From positions 89,801 to 153,800 of the forward strand of contig NZ_JAAXCY010000015.1 in NCBI RefSeq assembly GCF_014230465.1: 64,000 nucleotides of DNA. Direction: 5' to 3'. The notes beneath the pieces are model-generated. The model did no database searches and had not been told where the DNA came from. It saw only the letters and a list, made by a program, of their open reading frames with translations. Made by a program: the position numbers and the translations under genes. Each line of letters opens with the position of its first letter. Position 1 is the stretch's first letter. Shown here piece by piece: positions 40,586 through 46,946 of this stretch. The stretch comes from Pseudomonas cremoris. Its GTDB lineage: Bacteria > Pseudomonadota > Gammaproteobacteria > Pseudomonadales > Pseudomonadaceae.

Positions 40586-41380
40586 TCAGAACATCGAGGC
40601 CGCCTTGGACTTGGCCAGGTAGCGCGCCGGGGAATCTCCCAGGTTGCGGCGAAACACCGAGGTGAACGCGCTTGAGCTGCTAAAACCCAGTTCGAACGCC
40701 ACGTCGGTAATGGACGAACCATGACTGAGCCGCGCGGTGGCCTCTAGCAGGCACACCTGCTGGCGCCACGACACAAAGGTCATGCCGGTGCACTCGCGAA
40801 AGTTACGCGTAAAGCTGCGCCGGCTCATGCTCGACCAATCGGCCATCTCGCCAATCGAGATCTTCTGCGTGGGCGCGTCGAGAAAGCGTTGACAGGACCG
40901 GGCCAAGCGGGATTCCGAGGGCAACGGTGCGCTGAGGGGCAGTTCGGGCATTGCGCCAATCTCATCAATCAACAGGGTTAGCACGCAGCGGTCGCGCATG
41001 CTGGGTGAAACGGGCGGAATCGCCAGCGCGGCCTCCAAGAGATGGCGCAACAGCGGCGAAACACCAAAGACCTGGCAATGGTCCTGCAAACCCGCACGCC
41101 GGGCCGCATCGTCATCCAGGTACGTATTGAGCATCACCACATCGCCGCGCATGTGCATCTCATGCGACACACCACCTGGCACCCAGATCGCCCGTTGCGG
41201 CGGCACCACCCAGTTACCCAGGTCGGTAAACATCTTCAGCGCACCGGTGGAGGCATAGGCGAACTGCCCACGTCGATGGGTATGCCGTGGAAACACCGTG
41301 CCGGACGGGTACTCGCGCAGCGTCACCACCGCTTCGGGGCTGTCGGGTTCATAGGGCGAAAAAGTGAAGGTCGGCGGCAT
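40586..41380 (-). CDS. AraC family regulator divergent from crotonase/diiron operon
   Basis: A 264-residue protein. The N-terminal cupin half has PRHTHRRGQFAYASTGALKMFT and VPPQRAIWVPGGVSHEM. The AraC domain reads GEMADWSSMSRRSFTRNFRECTGMTFVSWRQQ, then ITDVAFELGFSSSSAFTSVFRRNLG. The 107-base gap to the crotonase gene contains TGTCA-N10-TGACA. It is the probable pathway-specific regulator of the 41.5-46.2 kb operon. Confidence 0.87.
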   Translation of the reverse strand: MPPTFTFSPYEPDSPEAVVTLREYPSGTVFPRHTHRRGQFAYASTGALKMFTDLGNWVVPPQRAIWVPGGVSHEMHMRGDVVMLNTYLDDDAARRAGLQDHCQVFGVSPLLRHLLEAALAIPPVSPSMRDRCVLTLLIDEIGAMPELPLSAPLPSESRLARSCQRFLDAPTQKISIGEMADWSSMSRRSFTRNFRECTGMTFVSWRQQVCLLEATARLSHGSSITDVAFELGFSSSSAFTSVFRRNLGDSPARYLAKSKAASMF

Positions 41381-41390
41381 GGCCCGATTT

Positions 41391-41410
41391 TGTCAAAGTA
41401 TGACCTGACA
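41391..41410. promoter_or_regulatory. TGTCA-N10-TGACA inverted repeat in divergent promoter
   Basis: Perfect five-base arms, TGTCA at 41391-41395 and TGACA at 41406-41410, lie 11 bases before the AraC gene and 78 before the crotonase start. Short arms mean it could be chance. It is the only symmetric element seen in this regulatory gap. Confidence 0.35.
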
Positions 41411-41487
41411 TAGCAAGCGGGCCACCAAGCCCCCACCTATCATCGTTGCTCCCCAAGCTGGGTTCATCTCGAAGGGATATTCGGAAA

Positions 41488-42273
41488 ATGAGTGTCAAAA
41501 ACTACTTGGATGTACGAGTAGACGGCGCCGTTCTGATGGTGGGACTCAACCGCCCGCAGAAGCGAAACGCCATGTCTCTCGAAGTCATGCACGAACTGCA
41601 CGACACCTTCACCAACATTCCCGAAGGCGTTGGTGCAGCAGTGCTATACAGCACCAGCCAGCATTTCTGTACGGGGCTGGACCTTTCGGAAATTCGCGAC
41701 CAATCGGTCATCGATAACGTCCAGGCTTTCCGCGAATGGCACAAGACGTTCGAACTGATCCAGTTCGGCAAAGTCCCCGTGGTGGCCGCAATCACCGGCG
41801 CGGCCATCGGTGGCGGCCTGGAAATCGCCACCGCCTGCAGCCTGCGCGTGGTCGATGACAGCGCCTTCTTCTCGCTGCCCGAAGCCATGCGCGGTCTGTA
41901 CGTAGGCGTTGGCGCCTCGGTGCGCTTCCCGCGTATTGCCGGCATCGCGCTGATGACCGACATGATGCTCACCGGCCGCACGCTCTACGCCAAGGAAAGC
42001 TACGAGCGCGGCGTGGCCCAGTACTTGGTGCCGGTCGGCCAGGCAGTGCTCAAGGCCACCGAATTGGCCCACAAGATCGCGGGCAACCTGCCCATGACCA
42101 ATTACGCGGTAACCCACGTACTGCCACGCATTGTCGACCAGAGCCAGCAGGATGGCCTGATGACGGAGGCGTTGATTGCCGCAGTGGTGTCTTCCGACAC
42201 CCGCACACAGGATCGCCTGGCGGACTTCCTGGATCGCAAGAAGGACAAGATCCAGACCGCGCCAGCGGTGTAA
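41488..42273 (+). CDS. Crotonase/enoyl-CoA hydratase family protein
   Basis: A 261-residue crotonase-fold protein from ATG 41488 with AAGGGA upstream. CoA-binding and oxyanion-hole segments are GLDLSEI and GAAIGGGLEIA. Both positions of the hydratase acid/base glutamates are kept (GGGLE and SLPEAMRGL). It probably hydrates, isomerises or hydrolyses an acyl-CoA or a related thioester. It is the first gene of an operon with a diiron oxygenase, an AsnB-like enzyme and an exporter, rather than of a fatty-acid oxidation cluster, which suggests a specialised pathway. Confidence 0.85.
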   Translation: MSVKNYLDVRVDGAVLMVGLNRPQKRNAMSLEVMHELHDTFTNIPEGVGAAVLYSTSQHFCTGLDLSEIRDQSVIDNVQAFREWHKTFELIQFGKVPVVAAITGAAIGGGLEIATACSLRVVDDSAFFSLPEAMRGLYVGVGASVRFPRIAGIALMTDMMLTGRTLYAKESYERGVAQYLVPVGQAVLKATELAHKIAGNLPMTNYAVTHVLPRIVDQSQQDGLMTEALIAAVVSSDTRTQDRLADFLDRKKDKIQTAPAV

Positions 42274-42353
42274 CTCCCGGTCGTGAAAGTTGCCGGGCGC
42301 GCCTCGGCAAACCATGGATGGCCTTCACAGCACATTATCAATCCGGTGAAACC

Positions 42354-43313
42354 ATGTTTCAGCACAGCACTCAAGACGATCTTTATCGCAGCAATGACGC
42401 AGCCGATGAACGATTGATCAAAATCGAACGCAGCTGGCACAAACGCGCACAGATCAAGCTGGACTCCCAACGTCCGGATATCCAGCTCGACCTGCAAGCG
42501 CCGGACTTTCTCGAGGCACTGCTACCCTTCGCCCATGATCCGCAGTACCAGAACTACCCGCATGCCCTGAAACTGCTGATCCTCTCGGCCGGCTGGGTCA
42601 TCTACAACCAAAAAACCATCGCCATCGAAACCGAGATCATCTGCCCGTCGTGCATCGACCTGCTGCAGCTGGGCTCACGCCTGAGCTCCGCCAGCGCCGC
42701 GACGATTTCCGAAACCCTGGCAGATGAGGCCTACCACACGTTGTTCTCGATCAACATGTGTGAACTGGCGATTACCCAGCGCGGCATGCGCATCAAATGG
42801 CCAGAACTGGAGCTGACCCGGCACCTGAGCCAAGCCCAGGCAACGATGTCCGAGGCGGACTTCAAGATCTACCGCCTGGCGTTCTCGCTGGTCTCGGAGA
42901 CGTTTATCAGCGACTACCTGGCCGACCTCAGTGACGCGCCCGACATCCAGCCGGTGTTTCGTCACGTGGTGGCCCTGCACAAAAAAGACGAGCTGGTGCA
43001 CAAGCACATCTTCCCGCTGTTCGTGCAGCAGGTGGTCGGTGACTTCACGGCGCAGCAAACCACCTTGTTTACGCGGGGCATCGCCAACTCCATCCGGATC
43101 TTCCCCATGCGCGAGATTTCTGCGTGGCGAATCATCCTGCCCCAACTGCTCGAAGTGTTCGGCGATCGCTCGCTGCTGCTGCCGACTCAATTTATCGAGA
43201 CCGGCGAAGCGGACTACTCGGCGATGCCCGACATCCTCAGTTCCATTGGCATACATCCCGCAGCCGTGCTGCCAGAACTGCAGGTGATGACAGAGCCGGT
43301 CATCACCGTTTGA
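42354..43313 (+). CDS. AurF-like diiron oxygenase
   Basis: A 319-residue helical protein of the AurF (p-aminobenzoate N-oxygenase) family. Candidate iron ligands follow the AurF order: Glu92 or Glu94, Glu125-x2-His128 (DEAYH), Glu182, and His209-x3-Glu213-x2-His216 (HKKDELVH). Members convert amines into hydroxylamines or nitro groups, or oxidise other small molecules. ATG 42354 is preferred to 42318. It lies 80 bases after the crotonase gene and 45 before the AsnB-like gene. No NRPS or carrier protein is nearby, unlike the pvf, mgo or ham clusters. The substrate is unknown. Confidence 0.78.
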   Translation: MFQHSTQDDLYRSNDAADERLIKIERSWHKRAQIKLDSQRPDIQLDLQAPDFLEALLPFAHDPQYQNYPHALKLLILSAGWVIYNQKTIAIETEIICPSCIDLLQLGSRLSSASAATISETLADEAYHTLFSINMCELAITQRGMRIKWPELELTRHLSQAQATMSEADFKIYRLAFSLVSETFISDYLADLSDAPDIQPVFRHVVALHKKDELVHKHIFPLFVQQVVGDFTAQQTTLFTRGIANSIRIFPMREISAWRIILPQLLEVFGDRSLLLPTQFIETGEADYSAMPDILSSIGIHPAAVLPELQVMTEPVITV

Positions 43314-43358
43314 ACCCAGCGTGCCGCTGATCACTACAAATTCAATCGAGTACTTTTT

Positions 43359-45263
43359 ATGTGTGGATACATTGGCGTCTTCGCCAAACAACCTCGTGCA
43401 TTCGACCCGAACATGTTCGATGCCGCCCTGCGCGCCATCCATCACCGCGGCCCGGACAGCTCCAGCCAGTGGTTCGACCCCAAGGGCCAGGCTGCTTTCG
43501 GCTATGTACGCCTGGGCCTGGTCGGGCTGGGCAACGGCACCCAGCCTATCGTCGCCGACGAAGGCGATCTGGTGATGATGGTCAACGGCGAGTTCTACGA
43601 CTACCAACGCATTCGCGCGGAGCTGGAAAGCTACGGCTGCCGGTTCAAGACTTCCTCGGACAGTGAAATCGCCATGCACCTGTACCGCCGCCATGGCGTG
43701 CGCGGCCTGAAGCAACTGCGTGGCGAGTTCACCATCCTGATTTACGACCGCCTGCACAAAAAGCTGTTTGCGGTGCGTGACCGAGTGGGCGTCAAGCCGC
43801 TGTACTACACCGAACATGAAGGCGCCTGGTACTTCGCTTCCGAGATCAAAGCCTTGCTCGCGGCGGGCGTTCCGGCGCAGTGGGACCACGAGTCCTACGC
43901 TAACCGGGGCTTTATCCTGCGTGACCGTACCGTGTTCAACACCATCCGCAGCGTGAAGCCGGGGTGCTGGATCATCGCCGACGAAAGCGGCCTGCAAACC
44001 GAGCAATACTGGGACTGGGACTTCCCCGGCGCCCAGGCCACCGAGCAGCGCAGTGAAGCCGAGATGATCGACTCGCTGCGCAACACCATCGAAGAGTCCG
44101 TGCGCCTGCGCCTGCACGCCGATGTGCCGGTGGGCGTCTGCCTCAGCGGCGGCCTGGATTCATCGGCCATGCTGGGGATTGCCACAGAGCTGACCGGCCA
44201 ACCGTTGCAGGCGTTCCACTTGTCCTTCGAAGGCGAGCAAGCCTACGACGAACGCCAGTACGCCGAAGTTGCCGCGCGGCATAACCGGGCGCACCTCAAC
44301 GTGTTGTCGGTGAACTCCACTGACATGGCGGATAACTTCGAAAATGCCCTATGGCACGCCGAAATGCCCTTCGCCAATGCCCATAGCGTGGCCAAATACC
44401 TGCTGTGCAAATACGTGCAAAGCCAGGGCATGCGTGCGGTGTTGACCGGTGAAGGCGCCGACGAGGTCTTCGGCGGCTACCCGCACTATCGCCGCGACAT
44501 GGTGCTGTACAACCACGAACACCAGGACCCAGCGGTGATTGCCGAACTCACCCGCCGTCTGCACGCCAGTGAAGACCGCTACCTGCCCGGCGGCAAAAAT
44601 GACGTGAAGTGGGTCCAGGACGAAATGGGCCATGGCGTGTCCTGGCTGCAAACCCAATCGGCGCTGTTCGGCCCGTTGGCACAGTTGTACAGCGATGACT
44701 TCCGCGAGCGCTTCTGCAATGTCGATGCCTATCGCCAGTTCTACGACCGCTTGAGCCCACGGGCGCTCGACGGTTGGGAGCCGGTCAACCGCTCGCTGTA
44801 CATGGTCGCCAAGTCCAGCCTGCCCAACGTGGTACTGACCTCCTTGGGTGATCGCATGGAAATGGCCGGCAGCCTGGAAGGCCGCCCGCCGCTGCTGGAC
44901 CATCAAGTGATCGAAGCCGCCTGCCGCCTGCCGGTCAACATGAAAGTGCGCGGCGCCACCGAGAAGTACGCCCTGCGCGAAGCCATGCGCCCTTACGTGC
45001 CGCAGGCAGTGCTGGATCGCAAGAAGCAGTACTTCCGCGCACCACCGGCGTCGGAAAGCCCGCAATCGAAGCTGTTCGAGATGATCAACGACGTGTTGAG
45101 CGGACCGGCGTTGAGCAACGTGCCGTTCTTCGACCCGCGTAAAGTACGCGCCCTGCTGGCAACCTTGCCAAGCTTGTCCCCCGCGCAACGCGCATCGGCA
45201 GACAACCTGCTGATGGAAATTGCCGGTCTGTGCCTGATGCAACAACGGTTCGCTGTGAACTGA
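43359..45263 (+). CDS. AsnB-like glutamine-dependent amidotransferase
   Basis: A 634-residue protein of asparagine synthetase B type. The N-terminal Ntn glutaminase has nucleophile Cys2 (MCGYIGVF), the HHRGPDSS motif and VMMVNGEFYDY. The synthetase domain has the PPi-loop VCLSGGLDSSAM (residues about 262-273) and LTGEGADEVFGGYPHY. The intact Cys2 means it can use glutamine ammonia to convert a carboxylate to an amide. Clustered with an oxygenase and exporter, it may amidate a pathway intermediate rather than aspartate, although ordinary asparagine synthesis is not excluded. Confidence 0.88.
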   Translation: MCGYIGVFAKQPRAFDPNMFDAALRAIHHRGPDSSSQWFDPKGQAAFGYVRLGLVGLGNGTQPIVADEGDLVMMVNGEFYDYQRIRAELESYGCRFKTSSDSEIAMHLYRRHGVRGLKQLRGEFTILIYDRLHKKLFAVRDRVGVKPLYYTEHEGAWYFASEIKALLAAGVPAQWDHESYANRGFILRDRTVFNTIRSVKPGCWIIADESGLQTEQYWDWDFPGAQATEQRSEAEMIDSLRNTIEESVRLRLHADVPVGVCLSGGLDSSAMLGIATELTGQPLQAFHLSFEGEQAYDERQYAEVAARHNRAHLNVLSVNSTDMADNFENALWHAEMPFANAHSVAKYLLCKYVQSQGMRAVLTGEGADEVFGGYPHYRRDMVLYNHEHQDPAVIAELTRRLHASEDRYLPGGKNDVKWVQDEMGHGVSWLQTQSALFGPLAQLYSDDFRERFCNVDAYRQFYDRLSPRALDGWEPVNRSLYMVAKSSLPNVVLTSLGDRMEMAGSLEGRPPLLDHQVIEAACRLPVNMKVRGATEKYALREAMRPYVPQAVLDRKKQYFRAPPASESPQSKLFEMINDVLSGPALSNVPFFDPRKVRALLATLPSLSPAQRASADNLLMEIAGLCLMQQRFAVN

Positions 45264-45316
45264 CCTTTAGGCGGCGCGCTGCGGATGCGGTGCGTCGCCT
45301 GACCCAAGGAGGGTCC

Positions 45317-46219
45317 ATGCTGAAAAAACACTTATCACTCGCCGTGCTCGTGACACTCGTCTGGGGCGTCAACTTCCCCATCACCAAATTGGGTCTGCGG
45401 GCGATCGACCCCTTTGTACTCACGGGCATCCGCTTTGCCCTCGCCGCCTTGCCGCTGGTGTTCTTTATCAAGCGCCCAGCCGTCAAGTTCAGTTACGTGG
45501 TGGCCTACGGGATCATCTTCGGGCTGGGCATGTGGGGCGTGATCAACTACGGCATCCAGGTGGGCGTGAGTCCAGGCATTGCCTCGTTGATCATTCAACT
45601 CAGCGTGTTCTTCACCATGGGCTGGGGCTTTTTGCTGTTCAAGGAAAAGATCCGTGGTGCGCAGATGATCGGCGCGGTGCTGGCACTGATTGGCCTGGCG
45701 GGGATCATTTCGACCCAGGAAGGCAACCATGCGGTGCTGGGCGTCATGTTGATCGTGCTGAGCGCGGTGGCCTGGAGCATCGGCAATGTCATCATCAAGA
45801 AGTCCGGGGTCAAGGAGATCTTCTCGTTCATGGTGTGGGCCAGCCTTATCCCGCCAATTCCGCTGTTCCTTACGGCCTGGCTGATGCATGGCAGCGCGGC
45901 GTTTGAAGGCTTGCAAGCCAGCCTCGACCTGACGGCAGTCTTGTCGATCCTGTTTCAGGTGTACTTGGCCACGCACTTTGCCTACTGGGGCTGGAACTCG
46001 TTGCTCAAGCTGTACCCGGTGTCCACCGTGGCGCCGTTGTCGTTGCTGATTCCCGTGTTTGGCATTGCCAGTTCGATGCTGATACTCGACGAGCGTATTT
46101 CCACGCCGAACCTGATTTCCATCGGGATCATCATCGTGGGGCTGGCGGTGGGGTTATATCGCAGGCCGGTGAACGTGGTTACCACCGGACAGGGCGTCGG
46201 CATGCAGCCCAGCAAATAG
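45317..46219 (+). CDS. EamA/DMT family transporter
   Basis: A 300-residue protein from ATG 45317 with AAGGAGGG upstream. It has ten predicted helices in two EamA repeats (TLVWGVNFPITKLGLRAIDPF, then LSAVAWSIGNVIIKKSG) and ends VGLYRRP. The family includes the cysteine/O-acetylserine exporter YdeD and other small-metabolite exporters. As the last gene of the crotonase-diiron-AsnB operon it probably exports the product. Confidence 0.85.
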   Translation: MLKKHLSLAVLVTLVWGVNFPITKLGLRAIDPFVLTGIRFALAALPLVFFIKRPAVKFSYVVAYGIIFGLGMWGVINYGIQVGVSPGIASLIIQLSVFFTMGWGFLLFKEKIRGAQMIGAVLALIGLAGIISTQEGNHAVLGVMLIVLSAVAWSIGNVIIKKSGVKEIFSFMVWASLIPPIPLFLTAWLMHGSAAFEGLQASLDLTAVLSILFQVYLATHFAYWGWNSLLKLYPVSTVAPLSLLIPVFGIASSMLILDERISTPNLISIGIIIVGLAVGLYRRPVNVVTTGQGVGMQPSK

Positions 46220-46243: not shown

Positions 46244-46549
46244 TCAACACGCGAAGTTGTCGATTTTCACCTGACCATCGGGAAACGTCGCAATAATTTC
46301 CAGCTCACCGCCCATTGCGCGAATGTAGTCACGCAACGTGCTGATATACATATCGGTGCGCCGCTCCATCTTGGAAACAGCCGCCTGGTTGATATTCAAT
46401 GCCTTGGCCAGGCTTTGCTGGCTCAGTCGCTGAGCCTTGCGCAGCTCATGCAGGGGCATTTCCTGCAGATGTTGCTGGAACAGCAGCTTTGCCTCCGCAC
46501 GGGATTGCGGCGTCATGCGCGCTTGAAGTTCAGCGAATTTCTTAGCCAT
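46244..46549 (-). CDS. higA: HigA-type antitoxin (XRE family)
   Basis: A 101-residue protein from ATG 46549. The helix-turn-helix reads LRKAQRLSQQSLAKALNINQAAVSKMERRTDMYISTLRDYIRAMGG, the standard XRE motif of HigA/MqsA-like antitoxins, and it ends KIDNFAC. The start overlaps the toxin stop by 8 bases. It neutralises the toxin and probably represses the operon. Confidence 0.85.
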   Translation of the reverse strand: MAKKFAELQARMTPQSRAEAKLLFQQHLQEMPLHELRKAQRLSQQSLAKALNINQAAVSKMERRTDMYISTLRDYIRAMGGELEIIATFPDGQVKIDNFAC

Positions 46550-46907
46550 GGTTACGGCCCTCTCTACGCATTGTTTCCAGATGTATGTCATACAACTTTT
46601 CTGCCACGGGAACATGCTCCTCATACCATCGGCGTTGTCCGGTCTTGTCACCACCGAGCAGCAACAATGCGCATCGGCGTGGATCAAAGGCGTACAACAC
46701 CCGATAAGGTCTCCCTGCGTGCTGCACGCGCAGTTCCCGTAGGTTGCCATGCCGGGAGCCCTTGATATCGCTACTGTGGGGAAAGCCCAACCCCGGCCCG
46801 AAAAGCCCCAGCAGATCAACGCTGGCAGAGACCGAAATCTGCTCCTTTACCCCCAGGCCATCCCACCAGCCTCCGAACTCATCCGTGTATTCAATTTCCC
46901 AGCTCAT
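46542..46907 (-). CDS. higB: HigB/RelE-family toxin
   Basis: A 121-residue protein from ATG 46907 (MSWEIEYTDEFGGWWDGL). The core is of the RelE/HigB mRNA-interferase fold (GSRHGNLRELRVQHAGRPYRVLYAFDPRRCALLLLGGDKTG). The GRPYRVLYAFD and GGDKTG segments are typical of phage-derived HigB (Gp49-like). The toxin gene precedes the antitoxin, as in other HigBA loci. Confidence 0.87.
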   Translation of the reverse strand: MSWEIEYTDEFGGWWDGLGVKEQISVSASVDLLGLFGPGLGFPHSSDIKGSRHGNLRELRVQHAGRPYRVLYAFDPRRCALLLLGGDKTGQRRWYEEHVPVAEKLYDIHLETMRREGRNHG

Positions 46908-46946
46908 GAAATATGCCATCCAAGGAATATAATCTCAAGAACTTAA

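What the first reader, a model, noticed from the sequence alone, without database searches (positions are those of the whole stretch)
41391..46219. Compact crotonase / AurF-like diiron oxygenase / AsnB-like / EamA operon under a divergent AraC regulator
Four collinear genes combine thioester chemistry, diiron N- or C-oxygenation, glutamine-dependent amide formation and export, with a private AraC regulator. No NRPS, PKS or carrier protein is present, unlike other AurF-containing clusters in Pseudomonas (pvf, mgo, ham). Seen directly: the AurF-like ligand pattern E125xxH128, E182, H209xxxE213xxH216; both crotonase glutamates; Cys2 of the amidotransferase. Known: AurF proteins oxidise amines to nitro or hydroxylamine groups. 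Inferred: the operon makes and exports a small oxidised, amidated metabolite from a CoA thioester or free amino acid.
Basis: partly seen in the sequence, partly recalled or inferred. Interest (0 to 1): 0.78.

Follow-up and report, generated by a model that had tools for sequence, protein, structure and literature searches.

The report
Pseudomonas hydroxamic-acid gene cassette
A small group of neighbouring genes in some Pseudomonas bacteria probably builds a small metal-binding hydroxamic acid without the usual giant assembly enzymes, and relatives have repeatedly lost the three enzyme genes while keeping the exporter and its switch.

Summary
In detail: divergent AraC, then crotonase, AurF-family diiron protein, asparagine-synthetase-like (AsnB-type) protein and EamA exporter, with all seven diiron ligands. 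AurF-family plus AsnB-type pairs are the hydroxamate module shown for benzohydroxamic acid and shown or proposed for trichostatin, actinonin and matlystatin, so a small exported hydroxamic acid is likelier than a nitro compound or plain amide. Support: outside Pseudomonas this diiron type sits beside a class I glutamine amidotransferase (17 of 26 loci) or an AsnB-type gene (6 of 26), never both; it lies outside the supported AurF/CmlI clade; the AsnB-type model's nearest solved structure is TsnB9, a hydroxyamidotransferase. It is not the trichostatin cassette: TsnB7 and TsnB9 are 25% and 28% identical, and no credible TsnB6 was found. New: in 33 of 398 Pseudomonas genomes with this AraC, EamA is beside it in 33; the three enzymes are complete in 11, one has a gutted diiron gene, 21 have none, five of these with deletion scars. 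AraC and EamA evolve under weaker constraint where the enzymes are missing; flanking genes hardly shift. The chemistry is inferred, not shown. New variant of a known kind.

The parts
40586..41380 (-). AraC-family regulator with cupin-type N-terminal domain, divergent from the operon
   Evidence: Pfam HTH_18, AraC_binding; in 33 of 398 Pseudomonas genomes at E<=1e-90
41380..41424 (.). operator-like inverted repeat TGGCCCGATT / AAGCGGGCCA overlapping the AraC start (role inferred)
   Evidence: conserved in the window, nine other complete loci and 21 loci without the enzymes (my pattern missed L022 and L207)
41438..41443 (+). possible -10 element TATCAT (TAGAAT in many relatives) of the operon promoter
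   Evidence: read by eye; not tested
41488..42273 (+). crotonase, subfamily NF006013 (PRK08150); E112 and E132
42354..43313 (+). AurF-family diiron protein, seven ligands; inferred amide N-hydroxylase
   Evidence: Pfam AurF; ligands; tree; model pLDDT 84, nearest folds AurF and CmlI
43359..45263 (+). AsnB-type glutamine-dependent synthetase, 634 aa; inferred hydroxyamidotransferase or amidotransferase
   Evidence: Cys2, R51, N76, E78, D101 and SGGLDSS; nearest solved structure TsnB9
45317..46219 (+). EamA-family exporter
   Evidence: Pfam EamA; beside AraC in 33 of 33 AraC-positive genomes

Best explanation
A compact cassette for a small hydroxamic acid, R-CO-NH-OH. Shown: gene order, families, intact catalytic motifs, repeated pairing of this diiron type with glutamine amidotransferases, repeated joint loss of the enzymes. 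Inferred: the crotonase acts on a CoA thioester and so helps supply a small acid; the diiron enzyme hydroxylates an amide nitrogen, most likely that of glutamine, giving glutamyl-gamma-hydroxamate; the AsnB-type enzyme frees the N-OH nitrogen in its glutaminase domain and joins it to an adenylated carboxylate; EamA exports the product and probably protects the cell; AraC activates the operon. Amide first and N-hydroxylation second would give the same class of product and is counted within this confidence.
Against: No product, substrate or activity is known. TsnB7 (25%) and TsnB9 (28%) are distant and no credible TsnB6 was found in 11 block-carrying genomes. AsnB-type homologues 66-70% identical in Burkholderia gladioli, Paraburkholderia and Chromobacterium had no counterpart among the 13 diiron homologues found, and one from Methylobacterium lies beside other genes, so this AsnB subfamily also works without such a diiron protein. 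G167 keeps crotonase and AsnB-type genes with a gutted diiron gene. A TsnB9 relative sits beside phenazine-type genes, so TsnB9 likeness alone does not show hydroxylamine transfer. DnfA's direct action on glutamine is disputed (PMC11440038). No dedicated reductase is in the block.
Confidence: 0.6

Rival explanations
1. Amide first: the AsnB-type enzyme amidates a carboxylate with ammonia from glutamine and the diiron enzyme then hydroxylates that amide. Same class of product, other order (its share of the 0.6 above).
For: Preferred by the authors for actinonin and matlystatin (PMC5719088); deletion of litN, an AurF-like gene, left non-hydroxylated amides (PMC10616846); like act and mat, our block has no TsnB6.
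Against: The same diiron type stands beside class I glutamine amidotransferases in 17 of 26 loci, which suits glutamine or its hydroxamate as the shared substrate.
Confidence: 0.25
2. The diiron enzyme oxidises an amine of its own substrate to hydroxylamine, nitroso or nitro, and the AsnB-type enzyme adds an amide elsewhere in the molecule (closest to the first reader).
For: AurF family and fold with the same ligands.
Against: Outside the AurF/CmlI/ham/pab clade and without its AE-x-x-[IV]N motif; linked to glutamine amidotransferases instead.
Confidence: 0.15
3. Nitrogen metabolism like the dnf system: glutamine is turned into hydroxylamine or N2, and the AsnB-type enzyme plays the part of DnfC.
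For: Relatives L106 and L031 have a class I amidotransferase, MocR-type regulator and YiiM-type MOSC gene, L106 also SHMT and aminotransferase, much as described for dnf (PMC9136411).
Against: Block has no class I amidotransferase, no reductase, and has a crotonase, exporter and private regulator; a true DnfA was not available for comparison.
Confidence: 0.08
4. The AsnB-type gene is an ordinary asparagine synthetase that happens to lie here.
For: Passes TIGR01536 (415.5 against 267.1 bits).
Against: Fixed order in 11 of 11 genomes and in P. lini with other flanks; lost together with the other enzymes; another family member in 8 of 8 genomes tested.
Confidence: 0.04

Closest known systems
ActI/ActJ (actinonin) and MatA/MatC (matlystatin)
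   Same: AurF-like plus AsnB-like pair, no TsnB6 homologue, substrate reached through CoA chemistry (PMC5719088, passages)
   Different: There embedded in clusters with NRPS and other genes in actinomycetes; here three enzymes, exporter and regulator only.
TsnB6/TsnB7/TsnB9 (trichostatin A; benzohydroxamic acid)
   Same: AurF-family amide oxygenase and AsnB-family hydroxyamidotransferase; compared directly through L131
   Different: TsnB7 25% and TsnB9 28% identical and elsewhere in the trees; TsnB6 absent; crotonase and EamA instead of PKS.
DnfA/DnfB/DnfC (Alcaligenes)
   Same: AurF-family enzyme working with a glutamine amidotransferase; relatives of our diiron protein lie in dnf-like surroundings
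   Different: Class I instead of class II amidotransferase; 2Fe-2S reductase DnfB absent here; true DnfA not compared.
LitN (lipothrenin)
   Same: AurF-like enzyme implicated in hydroxylating an amide nitrogen (PMC10616846, passages)
   Different: The passages describe it beside LitO, not an AsnB-type gene; sequence not compared.
AurF and CmlI
   Same: Family, ligands, fold
   Different: Separate supported clade and different motif at the fourth ligand.

Membership tests
AurF family (PF11583) | Profile score over cut-off and seven diiron ligands | tested here: met
   99.9 against 29.6 bits; 7 of 7 ligands
AurF/CmlI arylamine oxygenases | Falls in the clade of AurF and CmlI | tested here: not met
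   Outside the 9-row clade, support 100/99; motif differs
TsnB hydroxamate cassette | Neighbouring AurF-family and AsnB-type genes | tested here: met
   45 bp apart, same strand
TsnB hydroxamate cassette | Diiron protein in the clade of TsnB7 | tested here: inconclusive
   25% over 205 residues; TsnB7 branch very long, placement unsure
TsnB hydroxamate cassette | AsnB-type protein in the clade of TsnB9 | tested here: not met
   28%; TsnB9 in a distant 3-row group, 100/100
TsnB hydroxamate cassette | TsnB6 accessory subunit | tested here: not met
   11 block-carrying genomes: only a 52-residue match at E 0.002 in a frame with a stop in one; a diverged TsnB6 could be missed
Actinonin/matlystatin pairs | Sequence kinship with ActI/ActJ or MatA/MatC | not tested
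   Sequences not fetched
Dnf system | Class I glutamine amidotransferase (DnfC) beside the diiron gene | tested here: not met
   None found in window or Pseudomonas loci
Dnf system | Kinship with a proven DnfA | not tested
   No DnfA sequence reached
Asparagine synthase (TIGR01536) | Score over the equivalog cut-off | tested here: met
   415.5 against 267.1 bits; the model also takes in enzymes of other function, so activity stays open
Asparagine synthase (TIGR01536) | Makes asparagine | not testable with these tools
   needs an assay
Crotonase subfamily NF006013 | Score over cut-off and both catalytic glutamates | tested here: met
   325.8 against 232 bits; E112, E132
Hydroxamate biosynthesis | Hydroxamic acid produced | not testable with these tools
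   needs expression and mass spectrometry

The most novel reading that the evidence does not exclude
This is among the smallest hydroxamate pathways, free of NRPS, PKS and carrier protein, and its product is an exported agent that acts on neighbours. In Pseudomonas the locus has three states: producer (five genes), exporter-only (AraC and EamA kept after the enzymes were deleted: tolerant non-producers) and empty. The diiron enzyme belongs to a family of amide hydroxylases that swaps class I and class II glutamine amidotransferase partners, one for releasing and one for transferring hydroxylamine.
Probability: 0.25. Interest if true: 0.78.

Novelty: new variant of a known kind. Interest (0 to 1): 0.62.

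Why it matters
Hydroxamic acids bind metals and inhibit metalloenzymes; trichostatin, actinonin and matlystatin are examples. If this reading is right, a three-enzyme route that is easy to move into E. coli makes one in plant-associated Pseudomonas, for which I found no description in the listings of searches (open-access library; only the 20 best of 85 papers were shown). The natural deletions give non-producing, exporter-keeping strains for testing what EamA does, and the partner swap offers a way to tell amide hydroxylases from arylamine oxygenases in genome data.

Tried and rejected
Rejected: an AurF/CmlI-type arylamine oxygenase (tree); a direct TsnB orthologue; taking TsnB9 as nearest PDB hit for proof of function (a TsnB9 relative lies beside phenazine-type genes); PF11583 as a marker of this diiron type (28 of 369 genomes of the class match PF11583 at E<=1e-20, but of the 27 other than G001 only G547 matched the tighter profile).

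Dead ends: reaching Burkholderiales genomes, for the context of the 66-70% AsnB-type homologues and for a true DnfA, through order-level searches and a ribosomal probe. That P0007 (diiron) and P0026 (AsnB-type) lie on one contig rests only on an equal contig length (19618) and was not counted.

Weak points: the 26 non-Pseudomonas loci come from a scan with patterns taken from our own alignment, so they are not an unbiased sample; the amidotransferase profile was built from five of these loci. Within-group dN/dS medians (AraC 0.027 with the enzymes against 0.116 without; EamA 0.040 against 0.141) are confounded by the greater divergence of loci without the enzymes; I rely on the comparison with flanking genes. 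In one search the 12-nt matches of L213 and L215 and a 13-nt match of L208 were taken as chance.

Rows dropped: G001 was left out of the tree and the sets because its genes are frameshifted in that assembly; nine of 21 loci without the enzymes were compared with 14 complete loci (13 for KefB); the diiron tree used 12 of 18 loci with a class I amidotransferase (17 plus L106); the AsnB tree used three of four Planctomycetota proteins.
Full report
What is there. The window holds a five-gene block: an AraC regulator (40586-41380, minus), then crotonase, AurF-family diiron protein, AsnB-type protein and EamA exporter (41488-46219, plus), with gaps of 107, 80, 45 and 53 bp. Pfam assignments are over the curated cut-offs. 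The crotonase keeps both glutamates (E112, E132) and passes the cut-off of subfamily NF006013. The AsnB-type protein keeps Cys2, R51, N76, E78, D101 and the SGGLDSS motif.

Distribution. At E<=1e-40 the diiron protein is in 11 of 398 Pseudomonas genomes. In 11 of 11 the five genes stand together at one place, with lip and NRAMP on one side and KefB on the other; HigBA-like genes beside EamA are whole, partial or missing. Named records with the block include P. simiae, P. marginalis, P. reactans, P. canadensis, P. aylmerensis, P. nabeulensis and isolates labelled P. viridiflava. P. lini has the five genes at 79-88% identity, with none of the nine flanking genes tested in its 20.9-kb locus. Median dN/dS of the five genes over 11 loci is 0.028-0.069.

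Regulator and exporter without the enzymes. The AraC protein is in 33 of 398 genomes at E<=1e-90, and EamA stands divergently beside it in 33 of 33. Of the 33, 11 have crotonase, diiron and AsnB-type genes complete; one (G167, L207) has crotonase and AsnB-type genes but only the two ends of the diiron gene; 21 have AraC and EamA only. Five of the 21 carry scars: G018 (crotonase leader joined to about the last 50 nt of the AsnB-type gene), G241 (first 16 nt of the crotonase gene and the AsnB tail), G389 (crotonase and AsnB fragments), and G242 and G377 (AsnB tail only; sister loci that look alike, so perhaps one event). The other 16 show no convincing remnant, so early loss and an original two-gene state cannot be told apart for them. 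On a tree of AraC+EamA (37 rows) presence of the enzymes needs 6 changes, at least 3 of them forced by well-supported branches. Seven further stretches upstream of KefB were fetched: in G005, G062, G032 and G074 lip lies next to KefB and no block gene was detected there; G018 is the scarred locus; G070 and G033 have other DNA between.

Constraint follows the enzymes. Against 14 complete loci, nine loci without the enzymes give median dN/dS of 0.043-0.125 for AraC (complete pairs 0.025) and 0.041-0.149 for EamA (complete pairs 0.038). Flanking lip (0.047-0.078 against 0.059) and KefB (0.017-0.033 against 0.022) shift by 1.5-fold at most. EamA of G018 hardly shifts (0.041). Pairs are not independent, dS is near 1 for distant AraC pairs, and the method (NG86) is simple. 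AraC and EamA show no internal stop in any of the 37 loci. The inverted repeat at 41380-41424 is conserved with and without the enzymes.

What the diiron protein is. The genome-contig scan gave 36 loci, 10 of Pseudomonas and 26 others. Of the 26, 17 have a class I glutamine amidotransferase (16 next downstream, in L029 2.2 kb upstream; two of these proteins checked as PF00117), 6 have an AsnB-type gene next downstream (Legionella, Burkholderiales, four Planctomycetota), 3 have neither (one contig ends 83 bp after the gene), and none has both. With an assumed five AsnB-type genes per 4000, three or more chance adjacencies in 26 have a probability near 4e-5 (rough). In a 46-row tree the AsnB-linked diirons form three separate groups, and AurF, CmlI, ham-like and pabB-linked proteins form a 9-row clade (100/99) that excludes ours. 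At ligand E182 these nine read AE-x-x-[IV]N; the other 37, including TsnB7 from the S. angustmyceticus cassette (L131), read [ST]E-x-x-[IV][ST]. Loci L031 and L106 also carry a YiiM-type MOSC gene; such proteins are recalled to act on N-hydroxylated compounds. The AlphaFold model (pLDDT 84) matches AurF and CmlI best.

What the AsnB-type protein is. By phmmer, Foldseek and VIA-align the nearest solved structure is TsnB9, ahead of E. coli AsnB (model pLDDT 89.8). That concerns solved structures only: in a 36-row tree TsnB9 sits with a protein from a phenazine-type Rhizobium locus and is 28% identical to ours, while ours lies in a 14-row clade (100/100) with the Legionella and Burkholderiales diiron-linked proteins and with homologues from B. 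gladioli and Chromobacterium. So the pair was not inherited from the trichostatin cassette; similar pairs were put together more than once. The B. gladioli and Chromobacterium homologues have no known diiron partner, which counts against a fixed link.

Mechanism. The three-enzyme TsnB-like module is reported to make benzohydroxamic acid in E. coli from free benzoic acid, not benzoyl-CoA, with glutamyl hydroxamate as donor (PMC13418202, parts 1-3 of 4 read). AurF-like/AsnB-like pairs without TsnB6 are proposed for actinonin and matlystatin, amide first being the authors' preference (PMC5719088, passages). I recall, without a call, that E. coli AsnB accepts glutamyl-gamma-monohydroxamate and hydroxylamine as donors. 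The crotonase would help supply the acid from a CoA thioester; its nearest solved relatives are 3hin and 4izb (4izb is DmdD by recall, which releases CoA). Whether glutamine or the finished amide is hydroxylated is open: DnfA's direct action on glutamine is disputed (PMC11440038, passages), and LitN seems to act on a finished amide (PMC10616846, passages).

Verdict. Known kinds of parts in a coherent, unusually small combination: a new variant of a known kind of pathway, with an unexpected pattern of enzyme loss and exporter retention. PMC11160463, PMC9478400 and PMC9136411 were also seen in passages only. No paper on this Pseudomonas block appeared in the listings of searches, which cover open-access papers only.

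Noticed in passing
window 46244-46919 (-): Gp49/HTH toxin-antitoxin-like pair (HigBA-like) just downstream of EamA; whole, partial or missing in related loci.
   Followed up: partly
L106 3334-11791; L031 7610-13045: dnf-like surroundings: diiron + class I amidotransferase with a YiiM-type MOSC gene and a MocR-type regulator; L106 also SHMT, class III aminotransferase and an FAD reductase.
   Followed up: partly
L128 850-5614; L129 5033-10609: Another AurF-family locus in two Pseudomonas genomes with a branched-chain-type aminotransferase gene and others, resembling ham-type clusters by recall.
   Followed up: no
L054 (nearest genome G001): AraC, AsnB-type, EamA, KefB and LeuE-like genes are all split by frameshifts in this assembly, housekeeping neighbours too, so sequencing error is likely.
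   Followed up: no
L066 5589-9909: Streptomyces plasmid with an AsnB-type gene, an inositol-monophosphatase gene and an AurF-family gene in 4.3 kb: possibly another independent pairing.
   Followed up: no
L068 8932-12149: Pantoea plasmid with AurF-family gene, 2Fe-2S reductase and ATP-grasp gene: possibly an amide hydroxylase with a different ligase partner.
   Followed up: no
L070 37-4665: Methylobacterium nodulans plasmid: related AsnB-type gene (52%) with FAD monooxygenase, acyl-CoA dehydrogenase and thioesterase genes, no diiron gene listed in the stretch.
   Followed up: no
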